This document shows positions 2,866-39,521 of a DNA stretch of 64,000 nt, in pieces; position 1 is the stretch's first letter; each line of letters opens with the position of its first letter. The translations under genes were made by a program, and so were the position numbers. This DNA is from Thamnidium elegans (Eukaryota; Mucoromycota; Mucoromycetes; Mucorales; Mucoraceae): NCBI GenBank assembly GCA_025201345.1, contig JAIXMG010000022.1, positions 372,001 to 436,000 on the forward strand, given 5' to 3'. The notes under the pieces are model-generated. The model did not search any database and was not told the origin of the DNA. It was given only the letters and a program-made list of their open reading frames with translations.

Positions 2866-3462
2866 TACAGTTCCGTTTTTATTTAAAGACCTTTAAAAGT
2901 CGCAACGAGAGTTGTCAAATAAAACAGTGATAAGCTCCATATAGCAATGTTGTTCGCCACGTGGAAAGAGTGCGCGAGTATTACCGCTACCAGACTCCAC
3001 GGGTGCAATCCAGTTTCTTAATACTGCAGATATACTTGACTTGTACATAACACCTGATCCAAATAATTGTACTGAAGAGCACTTCTTGCTTCGGATTAGC
3101 TCTCCATCAACAGAAAGTATCACATAAATTCTATAAAGAGCACAAAAGCTACTCAAACACGAGTATTTTTTCGCGGCATACCGACCAGAATGATGGTCAT
3201 CTTCTTCCATACTGTCTACCGCCTTCTTTTTAGTTGCGATAATAAAATTTAGTAATTTCCGACATAATATTTTTCCTTGTAGGGAAATGAGTCTTGAAAA
3301 TATGTTAAAAGTAAAAGGCTACTAAAAAAAATCGAGTATAGTAATGTTTGTACTACTCTCCCAACCTTATCTTGAATGCGTGTTCATAGTGGCGTGAACC
3401 GAAACAGTTCTGGGGAAAATCTCCCTTTGAATGGAACATCTTTAAATAGAGCCGTTACAGTA
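2866..3462. mobile_element. Non-autonomous Tc1/mariner-like element (597 bp)
   Basis: The left end reads TACAGTTCCGTTTTTATTTA and the right end, inverted, reads TACTGTAACGGCTCTATTTA. Both start at a TA, as expected for the TA target duplication of Tc1/mariner elements. The ends match those of the 145-bp MITE at 16319-16463 and the single end near 20500, defining a small family. Inside lies a minus-strand open frame (2893-3210, open further upstream) containing SVDGELIRSK and GSGVMYKSSISAVLRNW. It resembles no transposase I know and lacks a visible DDE/D signature. Its origin, captured gene or element gene, is unknown. Confidence 0.5.
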
Positions 3463-3600
3463 AACCAGTAGCCAAATTGAAAAATAAAAAAGATAGAAAA
3501 ATACGATAAAGATTGAAGTTCACTCCTCCCCCAGTTCGATTAATATATTTGACATAAATTATTTCCGATAGTACATTTTTTATTTTAAAACTAGTGAGTT

Positions 3601-3906
3601 TTATAGAGAATCGTCTGGATTTCTGGGCGCACATTTTTCTGGTCTTTCGCATTGTCCCACTGGATTACCACCTCCAATTCTACGCGCTTGAATGTTGGGC
3701 AGTGATTGTTCATGAGCAGAGACAGACGCATGATCTAAAGAACGATTAGCTCTCTTTTTTTTAATTATGTTTTCGTCAAGTAAATTTGTATTATACTTAC
3801 CAAACCGAATAGAGCCTTCGCCTTGATTTTTATTAATGACAAGAGCACTGGCACAAGTAAAAAGCATGAAACTCGTAACAAGTGTAATAAAAGCTGTGAT
3901 ACGCAT
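3601..3906 (-). CDS. Small secreted peptide precursor (family member A)
   Basis: A 101-aa protein opening with a signal peptide (MRITAFITLVTSFMLFTCASA) and followed by a hydrophilic chain. A KKKR dibasic site at about residue 52 is followed by a segment of roughly 25 residues and then ARRIGGGNP, giving a second dibasic site before a Gly-rich tail with two Cys (GQCERPEKC). The signal peptide and the KR-spacer-RR/KR-GG layout are shared with the genes at 4244, 5265 and 9796. The layout suggests export and Kex2-type processing, which is inference. A GTAAGTAT sequence inside the frame could be a splice donor, but the acceptors I tried break the conserved tail, so I kept the unspliced reading. Confidence 0.6.
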   Translation of the reverse strand: MRITAFITLVTSFMLFTCASALVINKNQGEGSIRFGKYNTNLLDENIIKKKRANRSLDHASVSAHEQSLPNIQARRIGGGNPVGQCERPEKCAPRNPDDSL

Positions 3907-4243
3907 TTTCTCGAGTGTGAATATATTTTCTCTGAGGTTTTTTTTTTTCTTTGCTTTTTATATGTATTTTTTTTTTATGCAGATTATAAATGATATATGC
4001 ATAACACTCTGGCTTAGACATCTTATTGACGTGAGTATAGTTAAAAGCCCCCAATTTTATTAAATATTATGTCCAATCAGTGTTTATATTGGAGGAAGGA
4101 CACACTTATTAATCTATACTACCATCGTCTCTTCTAATAAAAACGACTATCAATGAAGAAAAAAAAAATCTTGGGGTAGATCATGAAAGTTGACTTCTTT
4201 TTTTTTCTTTTTTTTTTACTAAAGGTAATATTAGTGTAAGGGA

Positions 4244-4447
4244 TTATACTTCATTGTATTTTTTTTCTTTATTTACCTTCTCTTTTTTATCGTGAGTTTT
4301 ACCAATATACTCTTCGAACAGACCAATATTCCAAAGTTCTCCTTCATCTAGTGATATACGTCGTTTTCTATCAATTGTATATGCATCGCCACCAGTAAAG
4401 AGTATAAAAACAGCAACCATGAAGGCAACAAGCGCAACAGTACGCAT
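4244..4447 (-). CDS. Small secreted peptide precursor (family member B)
   Basis: A 67-aa protein with a signal peptide (MRTVALVAFMVAVFILFTGG, cut probably after GDA) and a short, charged mature part that starts YTIDRKRRISLDEGEL. It has a KRR site right after the signal peptide and a Lys-rich end (KTHDKKEKVNKEKK). It lies 338 bp upstream of member A on the same strand, and its signal peptide aligns with the other members. The C-terminal Gly-rich tail is missing. The 3' end may be spliced (GTAAATAAAG near the end), so the true C-terminus is uncertain. Confidence 0.5.
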   Translation of the reverse strand: MRTVALVAFMVAVFILFTGGDAYTIDRKRRISLDEGELWNIGLFEEYIGKTHDKKEKVNKEKKYNEV

Positions 4448-5264
4448 TTTTCTAATATACGCAAAAGCTATTAATTATAAAACTACTAGACTTAATTTTC
4501 GTCCGTTTTATATATGTTACGCATAATATTTATTTACTATATGAGGAGGGAATGTACATAATACCGGTTCGGATTACGTATACTTAATCTTTACTTTTTT
4601 TTATGCTGCATCCGTATGATTCTCTTTTGTTGCATATCGTATAAACATAGAACAGGTGGGTTTCTCTGTTTATATATGATACTTGCAAAATAAATCTTTC
4701 GATATCTATAATGTTACATTTAGTTATATGCCTTGATAGTTTAAAACTTCATGCCTTGATGCAAAAAAAAAAACCATCATTAAGACAAAAATATAATATG
4801 TTTCTAAATACACATATGATTAACCAAAAGAAATGTCAAAATATTAAAAACCGCATATTTAAACAAAAATAAATGCTATAATAGTAAATTATTGAAGATA
4901 TATGAGTATAACTCTTCTTACAAGATGTATGTTATTTATGTCTTTTAAAGCAAGATAAGCAACGCAAACAAAAACTTTTTTGTTTTCGTAATTTATAGAC
5001 TCATGGGTAATTGTAATACGAATTAGACTCGACATTAGATATTATGAGTTAAAATCCGTGCCCCCCCCCTTTTTTTTTAATGAAGGTAGATACTTTTTAT
5101 ATGGACCATTGCGTTATTGTTTTTATTTTGATATTTTATTAAACTAGTTTGCCACTAGACACTAATTAAAAATGAATCTTGTTGTATTTGAGGTATGTGA
5201 AAGGTCAACTAATAATAATGATAAACAAATTTTTATTGAGTAGGTTTTCTATCAACTGAATTAA
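4448..5264. other. Intergenic region, nothing recognised
   Basis: AT-rich sequence with short homopolymer runs, including C8 followed by T9 near 5064. I see no open frame with domain or family support and no RNA gene. Confidence 0.7.
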
Positions 5265-5600
5265 CTATCCCTTTGGGTGCAAAATGTATTTACCACGCTT
5301 ACAACGTTCAACGGGACCACCATCAGTCGAGTCTCGCTTATAGATACTGGTAAAAGAGTTTTGGGCGTGACCTTCACGTTTTTCATAGCCTACAATAAGT
5401 TCTAAAAAGAAAACCTTACGCAACCCTCTTTTTCTATTTACTTTGACTTCTTGTTTATTGAGTTTAATGCTACTTCCTTCCAATTCATTAGATACCTCAT
5501 TTACACCTCTCGTTAATGAGGAATCTGGTGCAAGCGCCTCCGTAAAAGCGAAAAATAAAAATCTAGCGATAGAAGTAGTAGTAAGTATAACCGTTCGCGG
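5265..5600 (-). pseudogene. Relic of the small secreted peptide family (start codon lost)
   Basis: From 5600 to 5265 the minus strand has an unbroken 111-codon frame. Its first residues, PRTVILTTTSIARFLFF then AFTEALA, align with the signal peptides of members A, B and D (MRT-A--TL--A---LF----A). The codon at the start position is CCG instead of ATG and is preceded by TAG, so no upstream start exists in frame. The tail carries EKREGHAQNS, then YKRDSTDGG, the same KR-spacer-KR-GG layout as members A and D. The only in-frame ATG (5483) lies after the signal peptide. It could instead be rescued by an upstream spliced exon, but I found none. Confidence 0.5.
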
Positions 5601-6237
5601 CTAGTAATTTAGAATTGATGTGCCATGTTTAGTAAATAAGAGAATTGTACTTTTATACTTGGCTCACTGCATTATTTACTACAACTATTCACGTTGCTTT
5701 TAGAGGGTATATTGCACAGAAAAAGGATCAAACACACAACCAGCTGCAATCACATCAGTATAAAATAAAAAGCATTAAACAAGTTCATACTATCAAAATG
5801 CAATAAAAAGTATCAGTGTAAATATATATTTTTCTTTTTAAGAAATAGGAAACGCGTGCTTTTTCGATACTTAAACGACAACTTTTTCATAAATGACTGT
5901 ATGCACAGTGATCACTTTAACATTCAGAAGAATTGTCTGTTAAATGGGGAACTTTGCATAAATTTCTCAAAAATAAAACAGTAATGAAAAAAAACAGGAA
6001 GTATCGTGGAATAAAAGACACCGGGATATATAATTATCCTCTCTTCTTGTAAGACTTGGGAGGCAGAACGTTGAAGCGAAATAAAATACGAGCGAGGTAC
6101 CCTGCCCTATGTAACATTTCCCTTTACCTTTTCTCTTAATAGTGTCTATACATCCTTATACCAAAATTCTCGAATACAAAAATCTATCATTACATCTATT
6201 CCTCTCTTTTTATTATTATTATTATTCTATATAAATA
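5601..6237. other. Intergenic region, nothing recognised
   Basis: AT-rich spacer between the peptide relic and the haem lyase gene, with a short (TTA)n run near 6210. I saw no supported gene. Confidence 0.7.
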
Positions 6238-7151
6238 TTACATGAATTGCCCTTTTTTAAACGACATTCTTAATCTATCCCACATACCGGATGGAGATAC
6301 TGCAGGACGTACGTCTAAATAAAAGCTGAGAGACATTGGCTTCTTTGGATCTTGCTTTCCAGAATAAAAATCAATAACATAAGTAACCTTTTCTCCGCAT
6401 CTATCTACAACCCAATCATGACGATCAAATGGAAGTGCATATCTAATAAACATATGTCAGTAAATGACATATAGACATGTATATAATTATTTCTCTTACC
6501 CAAACCAAGATCGAATACGAGCTTTAGGTGTAATATCTTTAGGACGTCCTTCAAACTTTGCTAACATGGGTTGATTACACTCACTACACATAAAAAAAAA
6601 ACCTGTTATTCAACGTGTTGTCACTCATAAAAGGTATGTATACTTTACGTTTGGTGTAACTTTTCCCATTCCAAAATCTTTTGCCATGCCATTTCATTAA
6701 CAGCGTTATGAATAGGAACGACTACTTGCATATCTTGTTCTTCTGGTGTCCAATTCTTACGTCTCATAGCATTAAAGAACATTTGTTCTGAAGGGTAAAT
6801 CCATAACTTATCGTCAGAGTTAGCACGAGGAATGGTTGATATCTCTCTTTCTTTAGCAAGAGGTGCCTTTTGATCAAGTTGAGGTGCTTGTTCAGAAATC
6901 TTGGGCATATTGTTGGTACTATCAATAGCGTCTGAATCACACCCTTCTTTAGAGGCAGGCAAAAAGTGTTTATAAGCCGAAGGATCAACAGGACATGTTT
7001 GAGGTTCCTCTGTCTTGGGTGGAAGGAAGTTTTTATATGAATTATGATCGACGGGACATTTAGGTTCTTCGGCTTTAGTCTCAATAGGTTTATGGTCTAC
7101 TGGACATTTTGGCTCTTCTACTTTTTGGTGATCAACAGGACACTGAGACAT
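6238..7151 (-). CDS. CYC3: Holocytochrome c synthase (cytochrome c haem lyase)
   Basis: Attaches haem covalently to apocytochrome c at the mitochondrial inner membrane, facing the intermembrane space. Three exons (6649-7151, 6500-6583, 6238-6442) give about 263 aa. Family signatures are the [18 protein letters not shown] block, [31 protein letters not shown] and the end block with VIDFYSG and [10 protein letters not shown]. The N-terminal region is unusual: CPVD occurs at least four times ([28 protein letters not shown]) where one or two CP haem-regulatory motifs are more common. The start at 7151 places the first CPVD at residue 4. Identification is secure; the meaning of the extra CP motifs is inference. 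Confidence 0.93.
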
Positions 7152-33905: not shown

Positions 33906-35518
33906 ATGCCAACTAAAGAGAATAAAGTATTGGAAAGTGCGAGATTCATTTCAGAGGTACAACAAGTTTCTATATATAAAAAAAAAGATAATTATGAAAT
34001 GTTCCTGAATGATCTAATATGTATATATAAAAAAGAACAGCAAAAATGTCTTCATTCCTAAAGAAAACTTGGACAATGCAGTTCAAACAGTATGTCAAAC
34101 GACAAACTAAAAAACCTTTTCCCGCAGTTAACCTTTACATACATAGATTTTAACCAATATGAAGAAAAGAAGTTATAGTACAAAGACTTGGAACGAACAT
34201 CCATTGCATCCTAAAGTAGCCGATTGTCGTACCGTGGATTGGTGAGTATTTGTTTTTTTTGTTTGATTTTTTTTTTTATTTTTTTTTACTGATTTAATAC
34301 AACCAAAAAAGGATCTTTTTGATTGATTTGCTCAATTTCTCATTCTGGAGCGACCTTGATGTTTCAGATAAAAGTGTACCACACCCTGATCGTTACGCTG
34401 TCACTTATGATGGCGTATCTTATACTGGATACTGGTCATTATGCGCTGCTATTAATCGTGGTAAGTTACGAAAAAAAAAAAGAGTATTATAATCTATAAA
34501 TCTCTAATCCACTTTTTTTTTTTAAAAAAAAAAGCACTTGATAACGGTATCCCAATTACTAACCCTGAGTATTATGGCAGTCAGGCTTCAGATGAAGAAT
34601 TAGCAGAGGTTTTTAAATCTGACACGAAAGAACCTGCACCAATGCTTGCCGAGAGAATTAGAGTGATGAGAGAAGCAGGAAAAGTTTTATGCGAGGTAAC
34701 AAAAACAAAACAGCTCAAACAAAGATAGTTTTAATGAATATATGTCTGTAGAAATTTGATGGATCTTTTATCAACTGTATACTCGAAGCAAATCATTCTG
34801 CAGCCAAACTTTTAGATATTATTATTGATAATTTCGGTTCTTTCAATGATGTTCACGACTTTCACGGAAGAAAAGGTATGCGTTTTTTTTTTAAAAAAAA
34901 AAAGCGATATATTTGATTATTAAAAAAAAACACGATTTAGTCTTTATTTTGAAAAGAGCTCAAATATTGATTGCTGATTTATGGTAAGTAAAAACCAAAT
35001 GAATACACAATTTTAAAATCTAAATATGTTCCTATAGGGCATGTTTTGATGGTGAAAGTTACGGAGAGTTTTATGATATTGATTCAATTACCATGTTTGC
35101 TGATTATAGGTAAACTTTTATACTCTCATAAAAAAAACCCATGTTTTCTTAACTTCTTATCTTTTTATTATTTAGAGTCCCTCAGGTACATATCACTCTG
35201 TAAATATTTGATAAGTTTCACTTGTCTAAAGATATTTTTTTGTAGGCTTTATATCAATTAGGTTTGCTTCGTTATTCTCCAGCTTTGATCAAAAGATTAG
35301 AAAAAAGAGAGTACTTCCCTTCTGGATCAGAAGATGAAGTAGAAATCAGAGGAAATTCCATTTGGGCTGTAGAATTAGCTCGTCAACGAATTGAAGAGAT
35401 TGATCCCAGCCTCAAGATCAATGCTATTTTAATTGATTTTTATATCTGGGACATGGCCAAAGAAATTCAAGATCAAATGACTGTACCAACTCATTGTACT
35501 AGAAGTTGTTTTTACTAG
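33906..35518 (+). CDS. QNG1: Queuosine salvage protein (DUF2419, Qng1 family)
   Basis: Hydrolase that releases queuine from salvaged queuosine 5'-phosphate so that eukaryotic tRNA can be modified. Several short exons. Exon 1 (33906-33956) reads MPTKENKVLESARFISE and exon 2 (from 34036) NSKNVFIPKENLDNAVQ; later blocks are TWNEHPLHPKVADCRTVDW, IFLIDLLNFSFWSD, ISYTGYW-like VSYTGYWSLCAAINRAL, FDGSFINCILEANHSAA, ACFDGESYGEFYDIDSITMF, EVEIRGNSIWAVELARQRIE and the C-terminal end VPTHCTRSCFY. These are family hallmarks, and the C-terminus is complete. The junction after exon 2 is ambiguous. The stop lies only 12 bp before a foldback transposon. Confidence 0.9.
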
Positions 35519-35620
35519 ATTTTTTTTATATACAGTGCGTCCACTCTTAAATCAAACTTGGTGGTACATTTTTTGAAAATAAAATGGAAAAAATTTGAAC
35601 TTTATTTTTACTTTATTTTA

Positions 35621-36066
35621 TTTTTTTTACGTGAAGACGGCTCTGGCAACATTACGAAGGAAGATGGAACTGAAGCTATGGATTTCGAGATTGAAGGCGA
35701 TCCTTACAATTTAAATAAACTGACAGATTTCGAGGAGTACCTGAAAAAAATAAACTTTTGGACGTCAAGATGTCTGAGAACAATAGTATGTGCTATAATT
35801 AATATCATGTTCAAGCCAGACTGTTGTAATCCAAATGTAACAAGACCTTCATAGCTGCCATTATTGTTGAAGACCAGATTATCTAGCATATCTTTTAAAA
35901 CTTTTGGTAATTTGATTTCTCCTTCTACAATGTGTTTTGTTCCATCCAGCACGTTCTATGATCCTTGATTTGGACGATACAACATACGTGAAAGAAAAAC
36001 TGTTTACTACGCCAGAAATCGATGAATTGAAGAAAGAAGCTTCAATGAATATAATATCCAGGAATC
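35621..36066 (+). repeat. Left arm of the long inverted repeat
   Basis: Pairs with 36138-36583. Plus-strand phrases include SGNITKEDGTEAMDFEIEG then LTDFEEYLKK, and later RSMILDLDDTTYVKEKL; between them a minus-strand phrase reads KLPKVLKDMLDNLVF and NGSYEGLVTFGLQQSGLN. These look like pieces of one or more host genes joined in mixed orientation. Confidence 0.85.
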
Positions 36067-36137
36067 TGCAAGACGCATTCGTAAATCTTTCAGGTTGTCA
36101 CAGCTGAAGTGATCAATGTAAACACCAAGCTCTTGCG

Positions 36138-36583
36138 GATTCCTGGATATTATATTCATTGAAGCTTCTTTCTTCAATTCATCGATTTCTGGCGTAGTAA
36201 ACAGTTTTTCTTTCACGTATGTTGTATCGTCCAAATCAAGGATCATAGAACGTGCTGGATGGAACAAAACACATTGTAGAAGGAGAAATCAAATTACCAA
36301 AAGTTTTAAAAGATATGCTAGATAATCTGGTCTTCAACAATAATGGCAGCTATGAAGGTCTTGTTACATTTGGATTACAACAGTCTGGCTTGAACATGAT
36401 ATTAATTATAGCACATACTATTGTTCTCAGACATCTTGACGTCCAAAAGTTTATTTTTTTCAGGTACTCCTCGAAATCTGTCAGTTTATTTAAATTGTAA
36501 GGATCGCCTTCAATCTCGAAATCCATAGCTTCAGTTCCATCTTCCTTCGTAATGTTGCCAGAGCCGTCTTCACGTAAAAAAAA
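36138..36583 (-). repeat. Right arm of the long inverted repeat
   Basis: Inverted copy of 35621-36066. A minus-strand frame crosses from this arm into the loop (RSMILDLDDTTYVKEKL to NPQELGVYIDHFSCDNLKDL), so the loop probably preserves more of the captured gene than the left arm does. Confidence 0.85.
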
Positions 36584-36751
36584 TAAACATTATGAATTAT
36601 GAAGAGTAAAATAAAAAAGTAAAAATAATGTTCAAATTTTTTCGAATTTAATTGGTTGAATGTTCCATTTTATTTTCAAAAAATGTACCACCAAGTTCAA
36701 AAAAGTGTTCAATTTGAGAGTGGACGCACTGTACATACATTTTTATTTTTA

Positions 36752-39521
36752 TTAAATATTTGACCAAGTAAGTCTTATAACATGATCTGTCTTTCTCTGT
36801 GTAGGTTTAATAAAACCTAAAAATTGAAGTTCTGCCACAGATCGAATAAATCGAGCCCTAAAATCAAATAACATGGTTAATAATCTTCTCTCGTTTAATT
36901 CACTTTATATTACTTACTGGACTTCATTTTCTTCCAAAGATTTGTTCTTTGGCCGCTTTTCTCTTTCAATCATACATCCAAACGCTACAAACCAGTCGTA
37001 TAAATTGATTAATCGACCACATTCGAGATAAAGTTTGTACAAGATACATGTATCATGTTCTGAAGCAATAATTTGGTCACTCTTTTCAATGCTACAACAA
37101 GGACAATTGAGGTAATGTTGTGGTTGAGTCAATGCAGTTTGAACAGAAGCTCGAGGTTGAGAAGCAAACGACTATATAAAACTTTATTAGATTTTTTTTT
37201 TTTAAAAAAAAAGTGTTACTTACTTTTTCATGCAATTTTATATTTGTATAATAGACCAGCTCAAACAAGGGTAAAGTTGTGAACGATCTCAGTAAATGAC
37301 CAAGTGTTTTATCGCACCATTCTGCAATATCCATAGCAATCTTTGAAGCTTCTGTGCCCTTTCTTTTCAAATGCTCCAAGGACTCATTTTGAACCTTCTT
37401 TGCAGTCTCAGTATGTCTACTTCCTTCATTTTCCAATACCATGCCTTCCAACTTCTTTGCCTTTTTATTCATTCTTGCATTATAAGCCTCATCAGCCTCC
37501 ATCAATTGCTCATAACGTTTATCCCATATCGACAATTGATCTAAAAACGAATTATTGACATCATCATAAATTTGCAAGAGTTGACGAATTTCTTTTAAAA
37601 GTCTTCCAACATGTTCTGTATCAATCTTTCGAACAAAGCTCACTAATTTTCGTACCATATCTATATTCTCTCCTAATCCATCTTTAGATTCCAATACTTC
37701 TAAAAGTAACATGAGTTTAGATTTATGTAGACTGGAAAAGGAAGGGAACTGAGCTTGTAACAGGACAAGCAAATTGAACCCCATTTTAAATTGCTTTTGG
37801 TATATTTTGATGTCGCATAAAAGTGAAGGAATAACTTCTGTGATTAAGTAATCATCATCTTCCAACAATCGAAGTGCCTTTTTGGAATCTGTTTCAACTA
37901 ATGATTCAATATAGTTTTTGAACGATCCAAGCATACGTATATGTGTAATATGATGTTCATTGATCAATTCACTTCTCATCCATTGTTGTAATGTTGCTGT
38001 CATATCAAATTCATCCATTTGTAAAAGAGGTAAAAAGATGGATAATGGATTTCCATAAAAGTGATGCATTAATGCATACTACAAATTCTTGTTTGATTAA
38101 AAATATTATCCCTACCAACACATACACACACACAAATAGTTTACCTTGATACTAGCAGTAACTTTAGTCATAGAGAAATCGTATAAATAGAAATGATCCA
38201 AAAGAAACTTGTAAGGACGAGGGCCAAACTTTAAAGTACTAGTAGAATCCAAAAATATCTTTTCTATCACTCTATTAAACCATACACCACTCTGCTCCAA
38301 TTTAAACTTTTCAATTCGAAGCAATCCAATGGTTGATTTATTAAGAGATTGATGAAGAATTTCAGTTGAAGTCGCAATACCCATAATACAAATAATTGGT
38401 AAACGAGATCTATATTCACTACAAATTGTAAAGAAATCTTGAAGGATAGCTGGCTCAAATGATTCGAAATCTTGCAGAATAATAACTAGGTTGGGCCTAT
38501 TTGCATATCTTTGTTGATGATGTTTATACCATCCCTCTAATAATTTCATATCATAAGGTAAACATTTACTTGGTTTTGCTGCAACTCCACCTAATCGATA
38601 AGACGTAGCCGCACGCTTTTAAATAGATGCATTGGAATATGAATAACACATACCCTTAAATACGAAACCCCTTTTTTTACTTTACCTCTGTTGATCTAAT
38701 CATATCATCATCATCCTCTTCATCCTCTTCACTTTCTTCATTATTAGCCATTGTCGTATCATTTTCTAAATCTGTTGTGAGAGCGTTTGGGGTATTTGCT
38801 AAAAATCGTTCAATCATTGTTCTAAGCATGTTTTTAATATTGGCGCAATCTTTAGATTGTAGTAAACAAACAAAATTCTTCTGTTTTCGGTTATTATCTG
38901 TCGTGGTTTCTTCTTTTAACTTGGAAGCAATGTGAGCAAATTGTGTATCGTGATCTGGTGTATTGATACCAGCAAATACAAGACCGGTAGGAATTTCGTG
39001 AAAAGGTAAGGCGACCATACTGTTAATATAATACGTATAAATAAAAAACGTACTCTTCTTTCTAGATACTAAAATATATTACCTCTCTTCAACATCATGA
39101 CTTTTATCTACAAATTGACAAATACTTTCGACAGCAGTATGGTTCATATCCAACAAGATATCCTATATTGTACTATTATTAAATATTTACTTTTTTATAG
39201 TATAAAATTTATATACTCACACTGATATCATTGTTTACGCTATCCCATACTTTTTTAAAAGAATCTTTTCGAAACAACATGGATTCAATCGGTTCCTGTC
39301 CATTAAACAATTGCTGAAATCCCTCGTTTAAAATTTCCTGACTATCTTGTTCAGCTCGTTGTGCGATTGAAACTTTTATATATAGTCGAAGCAAATTAGT
39401 TTTTTTTTCTTAAAAAAACGACAACAATAATTCAACATTAATATGATTTACCATTGGTTTTTCCTCTAGCTTTCTTTGTTCTCTTTGGTTCAGTTGTAGG
39501 ACGTCTTCTTTTGCCTGGCAT
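36752..39521 (-). CDS. ORC3: Origin recognition complex subunit 3
   Basis: Subunit of the six-protein complex that marks replication origins and loads MCM helicase. Eight exons (39452-39521, 39231-39372, 39083-39162, 38686-39019, 38145-38615, 37224-38078, 36918-37171, 36752-36857) join in phase, giving about 770 aa. The N-terminal basic tail is [20 protein letters not shown]. The AAA-like region has [19 protein letters not shown] and [19 protein letters not shown]; then comes [19 protein letters not shown], and the C-terminal winged-helix end has [19 protein letters not shown] and [10 protein letters not shown]. An acidic stretch ([12 protein letters not shown]) interrupts the ATPase-like core. 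The stop is 18 bp from the foldback element. Confidence 0.93.

What the first reader, a model, noticed from the sequence alone, without database searches (positions are those of the whole stretch)
35531..36733. 1.2-kb palindromic transposon filling the gap between two convergent genes
The queuosine salvage stop is 12 bp before the element and the ORC3 stop 18 bp after it, so both 3' UTRs and polyadenylation signals must lie in or across a near-perfect inverted repeat with 446-bp arms and a 71-bp loop. Any read-through transcript from either gene would fold into a long hairpin. Mucorales have Dicer/Argonaute silencing triggered by inverted repeats, so the locus could produce siRNAs and act on itself, on donor genes, or on read-through of ORC3 or QNG1.
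Basis: partly seen in the sequence, partly recalled or inferred. Interest (0 to 1): 0.75.

Follow-up and report, generated by a model that had tools for sequence, protein, structure and literature searches.

The report
Tc1-like transposon turned into palindrome
An old jumping-gene fragment between two fungal genes has become an almost perfect 1.2-kb mirror-image repeat, built much like the maize 'Mu killer' locus that silences its parent transposon, but whether this one makes silencing RNA has not been tested.

Summary
The palindrome is real and at the stated coordinates, in a Thamnidium elegans genome: 450-nt perfect arms, 71-nt loop, QNG1 and ORC3 stops 12 and 18 nt away. Correction: the outer ends differ by indels and are different TIR variants.

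Each arm holds the 5' end of a Tc1/mariner-type element, transposase start pointing inward, then two fragments of a Mucorales gene whose close kin are in Rhizopus and Mucor; no close copy was found elsewhere in this genome. The centre is a short repeat of the captured gene, which points to fold-back DNA synthesis.

The plan resembles maize Mu killer. Transcripts crossing it would fold into hairpin RNA; Piwi, Dicer and RdRP domains are present. The arm shares exact runs of 21-52 nt with 6 of 6 transposon loci compared, the inner part at most 17 nt with gene-family loci. So trans-silencing would hit the transposon family, not ORC3, QNG1 or the gene family. No RNA data; functional silencing about 0.2.

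The parts
35531..36733 (.). palindromic non-autonomous Tc1/mariner-type element, including a TA at each end (TA-CAGTGCG...CGCACTG-TA)
35531..35616 (+). left terminal inverted repeat plus subterminal stretch (short variant: lacks blocks of about 12, 22 and 26 nt)
36588..36733 (-). right terminal inverted repeat plus subterminal stretch (long variant)
35617..36066 (+). left arm, 450 nt perfectly complementary to the right arm; inferred copy
36138..36587 (-). right arm, 450 nt; inferred template, since the captured gene reads on from it through the loop
36074..36130 (.). inner loop of 57 nt; on the minus strand it continues the captured gene
36064..36073 (.). one half of the 10-nt imperfect inverted repeat (9 of 10 complementary) at the palindrome centre; part of the captured gene by protein homology
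   Evidence: P0042 homology runs ungapped to 36064
36131..36140 (.). other half of the 10-nt imperfect inverted repeat
35617..35788 (+). 5' end of the Tc1-like transposase gene (ATG at 35678, 58-codon truncated frame), pointing inward
36416..36587 (-). second copy of the transposase 5' end (ATG at 36526), pointing inward
35791..35943 (-). captured fragment P1, C-terminal part of a Mucorales gene (90% identical to 51 aa of P0045, Rhizopus stolonifer)
36261..36413 (+). second copy of fragment P1
36064..36270 (-). captured fragment P2, N-terminal part of the same kind of gene, running through right arm and loop (81% over 69 aa to P0042, R. stolonifer)
35934..36074 (+). copy of fragment P2 in the left arm (81% over 47 aa to P0042)
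35578..35583 (+). AATAAA motif 60 nt after the QNG1 stop codon, within the left end
36748..36753 (-). AATAAA motif overlapping the ORC3 stop codon (another begins at 36747)
35246..35518 (+). open frame carrying the last part of QNG1 (Q_salvage), stop at 35516-35518
36752..36904 (-). open frame carrying the end of ORC3 (ORC_WH_C), stop at 36752-36754

Best explanation
A Tc1/mariner-type element lost its interior, took up two inverted fragments of a Mucorales gene, and was then made palindromic by fold-back DNA synthesis. Shown: the composition, the inward-facing transposase starts, and a centre that is a short imperfect inverted repeat lying, by protein homology, in the captured gene, with the loop belonging to that gene on the minus strand. 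Inferred: a 3' end broken just after this repeat folded back, primed synthesis, and copied the right arm outward into the left. Functionally it is most likely a by-product that is silent or weakly transcribed. When transcribed across the arms, from inward transposase promoters or by read-through, it would give a long hairpin RNA for Dicer, and the resulting siRNAs could match the Tc1-like family, as in a Mu killer-like locus. Promoters, transcription and siRNA are untested. Later gene conversion between the arms (a rival below) is compatible with this origin.
For: Arms and ends. The outer 258 nt of an arm match the 5' end of an element whose other frames hit DDE_3; the 172-nt transposase part matches 13 other sites at 75-93% and none of them is an inverted pair. 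TIR CAGTG with TA at both ends. P2 homology to R. stolonifer P0042 runs ungapped on the minus strand through right arm and loop, 36270 to 36064, while its match in the left arm ends at the loop; the centre is a 10-nt repeat with 9 of 10 pairs, and its mismatch persists. Yeast inverted duplications start at natural inverted repeats such as an 11-bp one with two mismatches or a 5-bp one (PMC10622511, passages). Machinery: 1 Piwi, 2 Dicer_dimer and 3 RdRP places. The arm shares exact 21-52 nt runs with 6 of 6 transposon loci compared.
Against: No RNA or small-RNA data. The outer ends differ while the interior is identical, which simple copying of a whole arm does not explain; end exchange with another TIR or later gene conversion must be added. 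The yeast repeats cited had spacers of 6 and 35 bp, here 57, and in that study mismatches were corrected in nearly all clones, whereas here the mismatch is kept. The DNA of the native gene was not seen, only its protein relatives. Frames of the transposase are broken in 3 of 3 loci read, so there may be no active member of this family to silence; distant relatives at about 21-38% identity do have open frames of up to 456 codons.
Confidence: 0.6

Rival explanations
1. Functional Mu killer-type locus: the palindrome is transcribed, diced into siRNAs and silences the Tc1-like family in trans, and is kept for that reason.
For: Organisation matches Mu killer (inverted duplication of the transposase 5' end with TIRs at both ends, between two genes; PMC3440606 passages); exact 21-52 nt runs in 6 of 6 transposon loci compared; RNAi domains present; transposase frames broken in 3 of 3 loci read, as could be expected if long silenced.
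Against: No transcript or small-RNA data; broken copies are equally expected of a dead family; nothing shows selection on the palindrome.
Confidence: 0.2
2. One reading: read-through of QNG1 or ORC3 makes the hairpin and so regulates these genes or the donor gene.
For: Stops lie 12 and 18 nt from the element, and the element folds as RNA at -934.5 kcal/mol.
Against: AATAAA motifs precede both arms; the arm shares no run of 16 nt or more with the rest of the window, so siRNAs could not match the flanking genes; no close donor gene was found in this genome. In Mu killer, read-through sense transcripts were found in plants that failed to silence.
Confidence: 0.1
3. Old palindrome kept identical by gene conversion between arms; formation is ancient and only the interior is homogenised. 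Not exclusive of the fold-back origin.
For: 0 differences in 450 nt against several substitutions and three indels in the outer ends; identity stops next to the 26-nt indel, a likely barrier to conversion.
Against: The same pattern follows if the ends come from two different TIR variants, which L003 also shows at its two ends.
Confidence: 0.3
4. Assembly or amplification artefact.
For: Long perfect palindromes with short loops are a known artefact class, and amplification chimeras can also start at short inverted repeats (recalled).
Against: Different genes on the two sides, different TIR variants and a TA at both ends; an artefact would be expected to mirror the flanks too.
Confidence: 0.04

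Closest known systems
Mu killer (maize)
   Same: Inverted duplication of the transposase 5' end with a TIR at both ends, interior of the parent lost, sits between two host genes; proposed hairpin or antisense source of silencing RNA (PMC3440606, abstract and passages)
   Different: Tc1/mariner-type instead of Mutator; about 170 nt instead of 1.3 kb of transposase per arm; carries captured gene fragments; palindrome centre readable; silencing not demonstrated; the two TIRs are different variants
Tc1/mariner non-autonomous elements and MITEs
   Same: CAGTG-type TIRs with TA, internal deletion, dependence on another copy's transposase (inferred)
   Different: Interior is a 450-bp perfect palindrome, and no second copy of the whole element appeared in the genome searches (lower bounds)
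Foldback (FB) elements (recalled)
   Same: Long inverted arms, small loop
   Different: Arms are one inverted duplication of a transposase end plus gene fragments, not long TIRs of a family; no other copy appeared
Gene-fragment-carrying transposons (Pack-type, recalled)
   Same: Host-type gene fragments between TIRs
   Different: Fragments are in opposite orientation to each other and then duplicated as a palindrome; no close donor found in this genome
Fold-back inverted duplications in yeast (PMC10622511, passages)
   Same: Centre at a short imperfect natural inverted repeat
   Different: Small scale inside a transposon; longer spacer (57 nt); mismatch kept, where nearly all yeast clones had corrected it

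Membership tests
Tc1/mariner superfamily | DDE_3-type transposase in the parent element | tested here: met
   PF13358 E 7e-17 on an L002 frame; 36 residues between second site (N in this copy) and last E in L002, 34 in a neighbouring copy in L003
Tc1/mariner superfamily | TA at both ends and CAGTG-type TIRs | tested here: met
   TACAGTGCG...CGCACTGTA at 35531 and 36733; the empty site was not seen
Tc1/mariner superfamily | own complete transposase | tested here: not met
   only a 58-codon truncated frame per arm: a non-autonomous derivative
Mu killer-type silencing locus (works like) | inverted duplication of the transposase 5' end with TIRs outside | tested here: met
Mu killer-type silencing locus (works like) | sequence match long enough for siRNA on family members | tested here: met
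   21-52 nt exact runs in 6 of 6 loci compared, out of 13 other sites known
Mu killer-type silencing locus (works like) | antisense or hairpin transcript, siRNA and dominant trans-silencing | not testable with these tools
   no RNA data
Mutator superfamily (true Mu killer) | MuDR/mudrA-derived | tested here: not met
   parent transposase is DDE_3
MITE / foldback family | multiple copies of the same short inverted-repeat element | tested here: not met
   no other inverted pair among 13 other sites; middle matches only itself; both searches give lower bounds

The most novel reading that the evidence does not exclude
A natural Mu killer-type locus in a fungus: fold-back duplication of a Tc1-like 5' end with inward promoters created, in one step, a hairpin-RNA gene that silences its parent transposon family through the Mucorales RNAi pathway.
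Probability: 0.2. Interest if true: 0.75.

Novelty: new variant of a known kind. Interest (0 to 1): 0.45.

Why it matters
How a genome first acquires a silencing trigger against a transposon is an open question. Mu killer is the best-known single-locus case (recalled), and in the 2012 study its centre could not be sequenced (PMC3440606). Here the whole structure is readable, including a centre that suggests how the palindrome formed, in a fungus with Dicer, Argonaute and RdRP domains. Small-RNA sequencing of one strain would decide whether it acts.

Tried and rejected
Cargo function: Pfam gave nothing above cut-off for the captured fragments or for P0001 and P0041. P0031, a 484-aa prediction overlapping a family member at C64, does pass for PF21125 (MPN_2A_DUB_like); I did not work out whether that part belongs to the gene family. 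AlphaFold on the 20-sequence alignment reached mean pLDDT 45.9, so no fold search was run; a PD-(D/E)XK-like nuclease is only a hunch from motif memory.

Recurrent palindromes in the cargo gene family: inverted repeats of 150 bp or more at 90% or more were found in 4 of 24 merged family stretches (108.8 kb) and in 0 of 11 control stretches (103.6 kb). This is suggestive only. The family stretches hold the loci given for part of the matches (30 loci from the 52 matches, plus those); C2 had been seen before the count and C11 was extended after a first sight of its repeat; the window's own palindrome is below the 90% cut over its whole length (87.6%) and is not counted; the C14 arms resemble a dispersed repeat (98.9% match in C11).

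Assigning the left end as the element's 5' TIR and the right as its 3' TIR: the block of about 12 nt is mixed among the ends aligned, so not claimed.

Literature: no fungal Mu killer-like locus in the listings of six searches; most subscription papers are not held.

Full report
Where it is. The window is contig C15, 372001-436000, of a 34.1-Mb genome in 64 contigs. Contigs C11 and C64 have the lengths given for Thamnidium elegans BDF21DRAFT proteins (711124 and 1218868), so this is taken as a T. elegans genome (Mucorales).

The observation. Self-comparison gives inverted arms of 450 nt without a mismatch (35617-36066 and 36138-36587) around 71 nt. One mismatch (36067 T, 36137 C) and six more pairs follow, leaving a 57-nt inner loop. 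Outside the arms the two ends are clearly not identical: the left lacks blocks of about 12, 22 and 26 nt and has several substitutions. Both ends begin with TACAGTGCGTCCACTC, thus a TA plus a CAGTG-type TIR. Pfam supports QNG1 on the left (PF10343) and ORC3 on the right (PF18137). Stops lie 12 nt before and 18 nt after.

What the arms are made of. The outer 258 nt match many places in the genome; the middle matches only itself (40 of 49 candidates scored, lower bounds). The outer part is the 5' end of an element whose further frames hit DDE_3, a Tc1/mariner-type transposase. In L002, 36 residues separate the last E from the second catalytic site, which is mutated to N; a neighbouring copy in L003 has 34. 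An ATG with a 58-codon truncated frame lies in each arm, both pointing inward (35678 plus, 36526 minus). The 172-nt transposase part occurs at 13 other sites at 75-93% identity (16 matches, two of them the window's own arms and two of them adjacent pieces of one site). None of these is an inverted pair. Frames are broken in the three loci whose frames I read (L002, L003, L006). The longest frames in the six loci L002-L007 are 112-182 codons, except 318 in L005, which runs off an end of the locus and was not identified. A protein search lists more distant relatives, about 21-38% identical, some with open frames of up to 456 codons, so other Tc1-like families may be intact.

The rest of each arm is two fragments of one kind of Mucorales gene. 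The closest public proteins are from Rhizopus and Mucor: P0042 and P0045 of R. stolonifer, P0041 of R. delemar, P0046 of Mucor fragilis. Right-arm readings of the pieces are 72-90% identical over 32-72 aa to P0042-P0048, setting aside one 94% piece of 18 aa; P0041 aligns only in one gapped stretch at 45% there. In this genome a search with P0041 finds the palindrome at 83% (fragment P1) and 62% (fragment P2). Other places are weaker: 39-40% for the two best by score, and 50-58% in short pieces of 37-77 aa. So a close donor was not found here; it was lost, missed, or never native. The two fragments lie in opposite orientation to each other within the arm.

How the palindrome formed. On the minus strand, homology to P0042 runs without a gap from 36270 to 36064, through the right arm and the loop. 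In the left arm the match to P0042 on the plus strand stops at the loop. So right arm plus loop looks like the original and the left arm the copy. As read on the minus strand, the captured gene carries ATCCGCAAGA and, after 57 nt, TCTTGCAGAT, which pair at 9 of 10 positions. The palindrome is centred exactly there, and the unpaired base survives as the single mismatch. The DNA of a native copy was not seen; that both halves belong to the gene rests on protein homology. This is what fold-back priming after a break predicts. In yeast, natural inverted repeats of 11 bp with two mismatches, or of 5 bp, served as such centres, with spacers of 6 and 35 bp; mismatches there were corrected in nearly all clones, unlike here (PMC10622511, passages only).

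The ends. In an alignment of 21 ends, the window's two included, the block of about 12 nt that separates the right from the left end is present in some copies and absent in others, and L003 has one of each. The two ends are therefore different TIR variants, not recent copies of each other. Either the copied arm was joined to another TIR, or the interior was later homogenised by gene conversion; the data do not decide.

What it could do. The genome holds places for one Piwi, two Dicer_dimer and three RdRP domains over cut-off, in line with a published survey of Mucorales genomes that includes a T. elegans (PMC7928374, passages), which also names Tc1/mariner as the largest TE group in the Mucorales. 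A transcript across the element would fold at -934.5 kcal/mol. The longest exact matches between the arm and the transposon loci L002-L007 are 44, 52, 41, 21, 49 and 28 nt. No other locus fetched by then shared 18 nt with the arm, the inner part shares at most 17 nt with gene-family loci, and the arm shares no run of 16 nt or more with the rest of the window. The possible target is thus the transposon family.

AATAAA overlaps the ORC3 stop and recurs 5 nt on; for QNG1 it lies 60 nt after the stop, before the arm. Motifs are not proof of use, but both genes could end without entering the arms.

Comparison. Maize Mu killer is an internally deleted, partially duplicated MuDR with both TIRs from the mudrA side, inverted partial mudrA copies, between two genes; it silences MuDR. 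The 2012 study found that silencing plants made short antisense transcripts from inside the locus, while read-through sense transcripts went with failure to silence (PMC3440606, abstract and passages). The present element has the same plan on a Tc1-like element, with captured gene fragments added, but no silencing evidence. It is a new variant of a known kind in structure; as a silencing locus it is a hypothesis.

Side finding. The cargo gene family lies in other young inverted repeats in this genome: C2:512731-515956 (arms 1564 nt at 99.7%, 98-nt loop), C11:446304-450953 (1162 nt, 99.7%), C64:1095897-1098331 (768 nt, 99.2%) and C14:8210-9259 (268 nt, 100%). Against controls this is 4 of 24 stretches against 0 of 11, too few to claim.

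Noticed in passing
L024 (G000:C2:509500-519200), 3232-6457: A second large near-perfect palindrome, arms 1564 nt at 99.7%, 98-nt loop, holding a member of the same gene family as the cargo, tail to tail.
   Followed up: partly
G000:C11:446304-450953 (L069, L025, L070): 1162-nt inverted repeats at 99.7% identity flank an open 421-codon member of the gene family.
   Followed up: partly
L036/L041 (G000:C64:1095897-1098331): Divergent pair of gene-family members in 768-nt inverted repeats at 99.2%.
   Followed up: partly
L033 (G000:C14:8210-9259): 268-nt perfect inverted repeat between matches of a gene-family member; its sequence recurs at 98.9% in C11, so it may be a dispersed element.
   Followed up: no
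G000: Unnamed Mucorales gene family with 52 matches in this genome (the window's own included) and relatives in Mucor, Rhizopus, Pilaira, Parasitella and others; no Pfam family for the member P0001; conserved segments around HPSRS, CDLVF and KLPxxLKDMLD.
   Followed up: partly
window:36064-36413: The captured gene fragments are closer to Rhizopus/Mucor fragilis proteins than to any other place found in this genome; loss of the donor or arrival with a transferred transposon are both open.
   Followed up: partly
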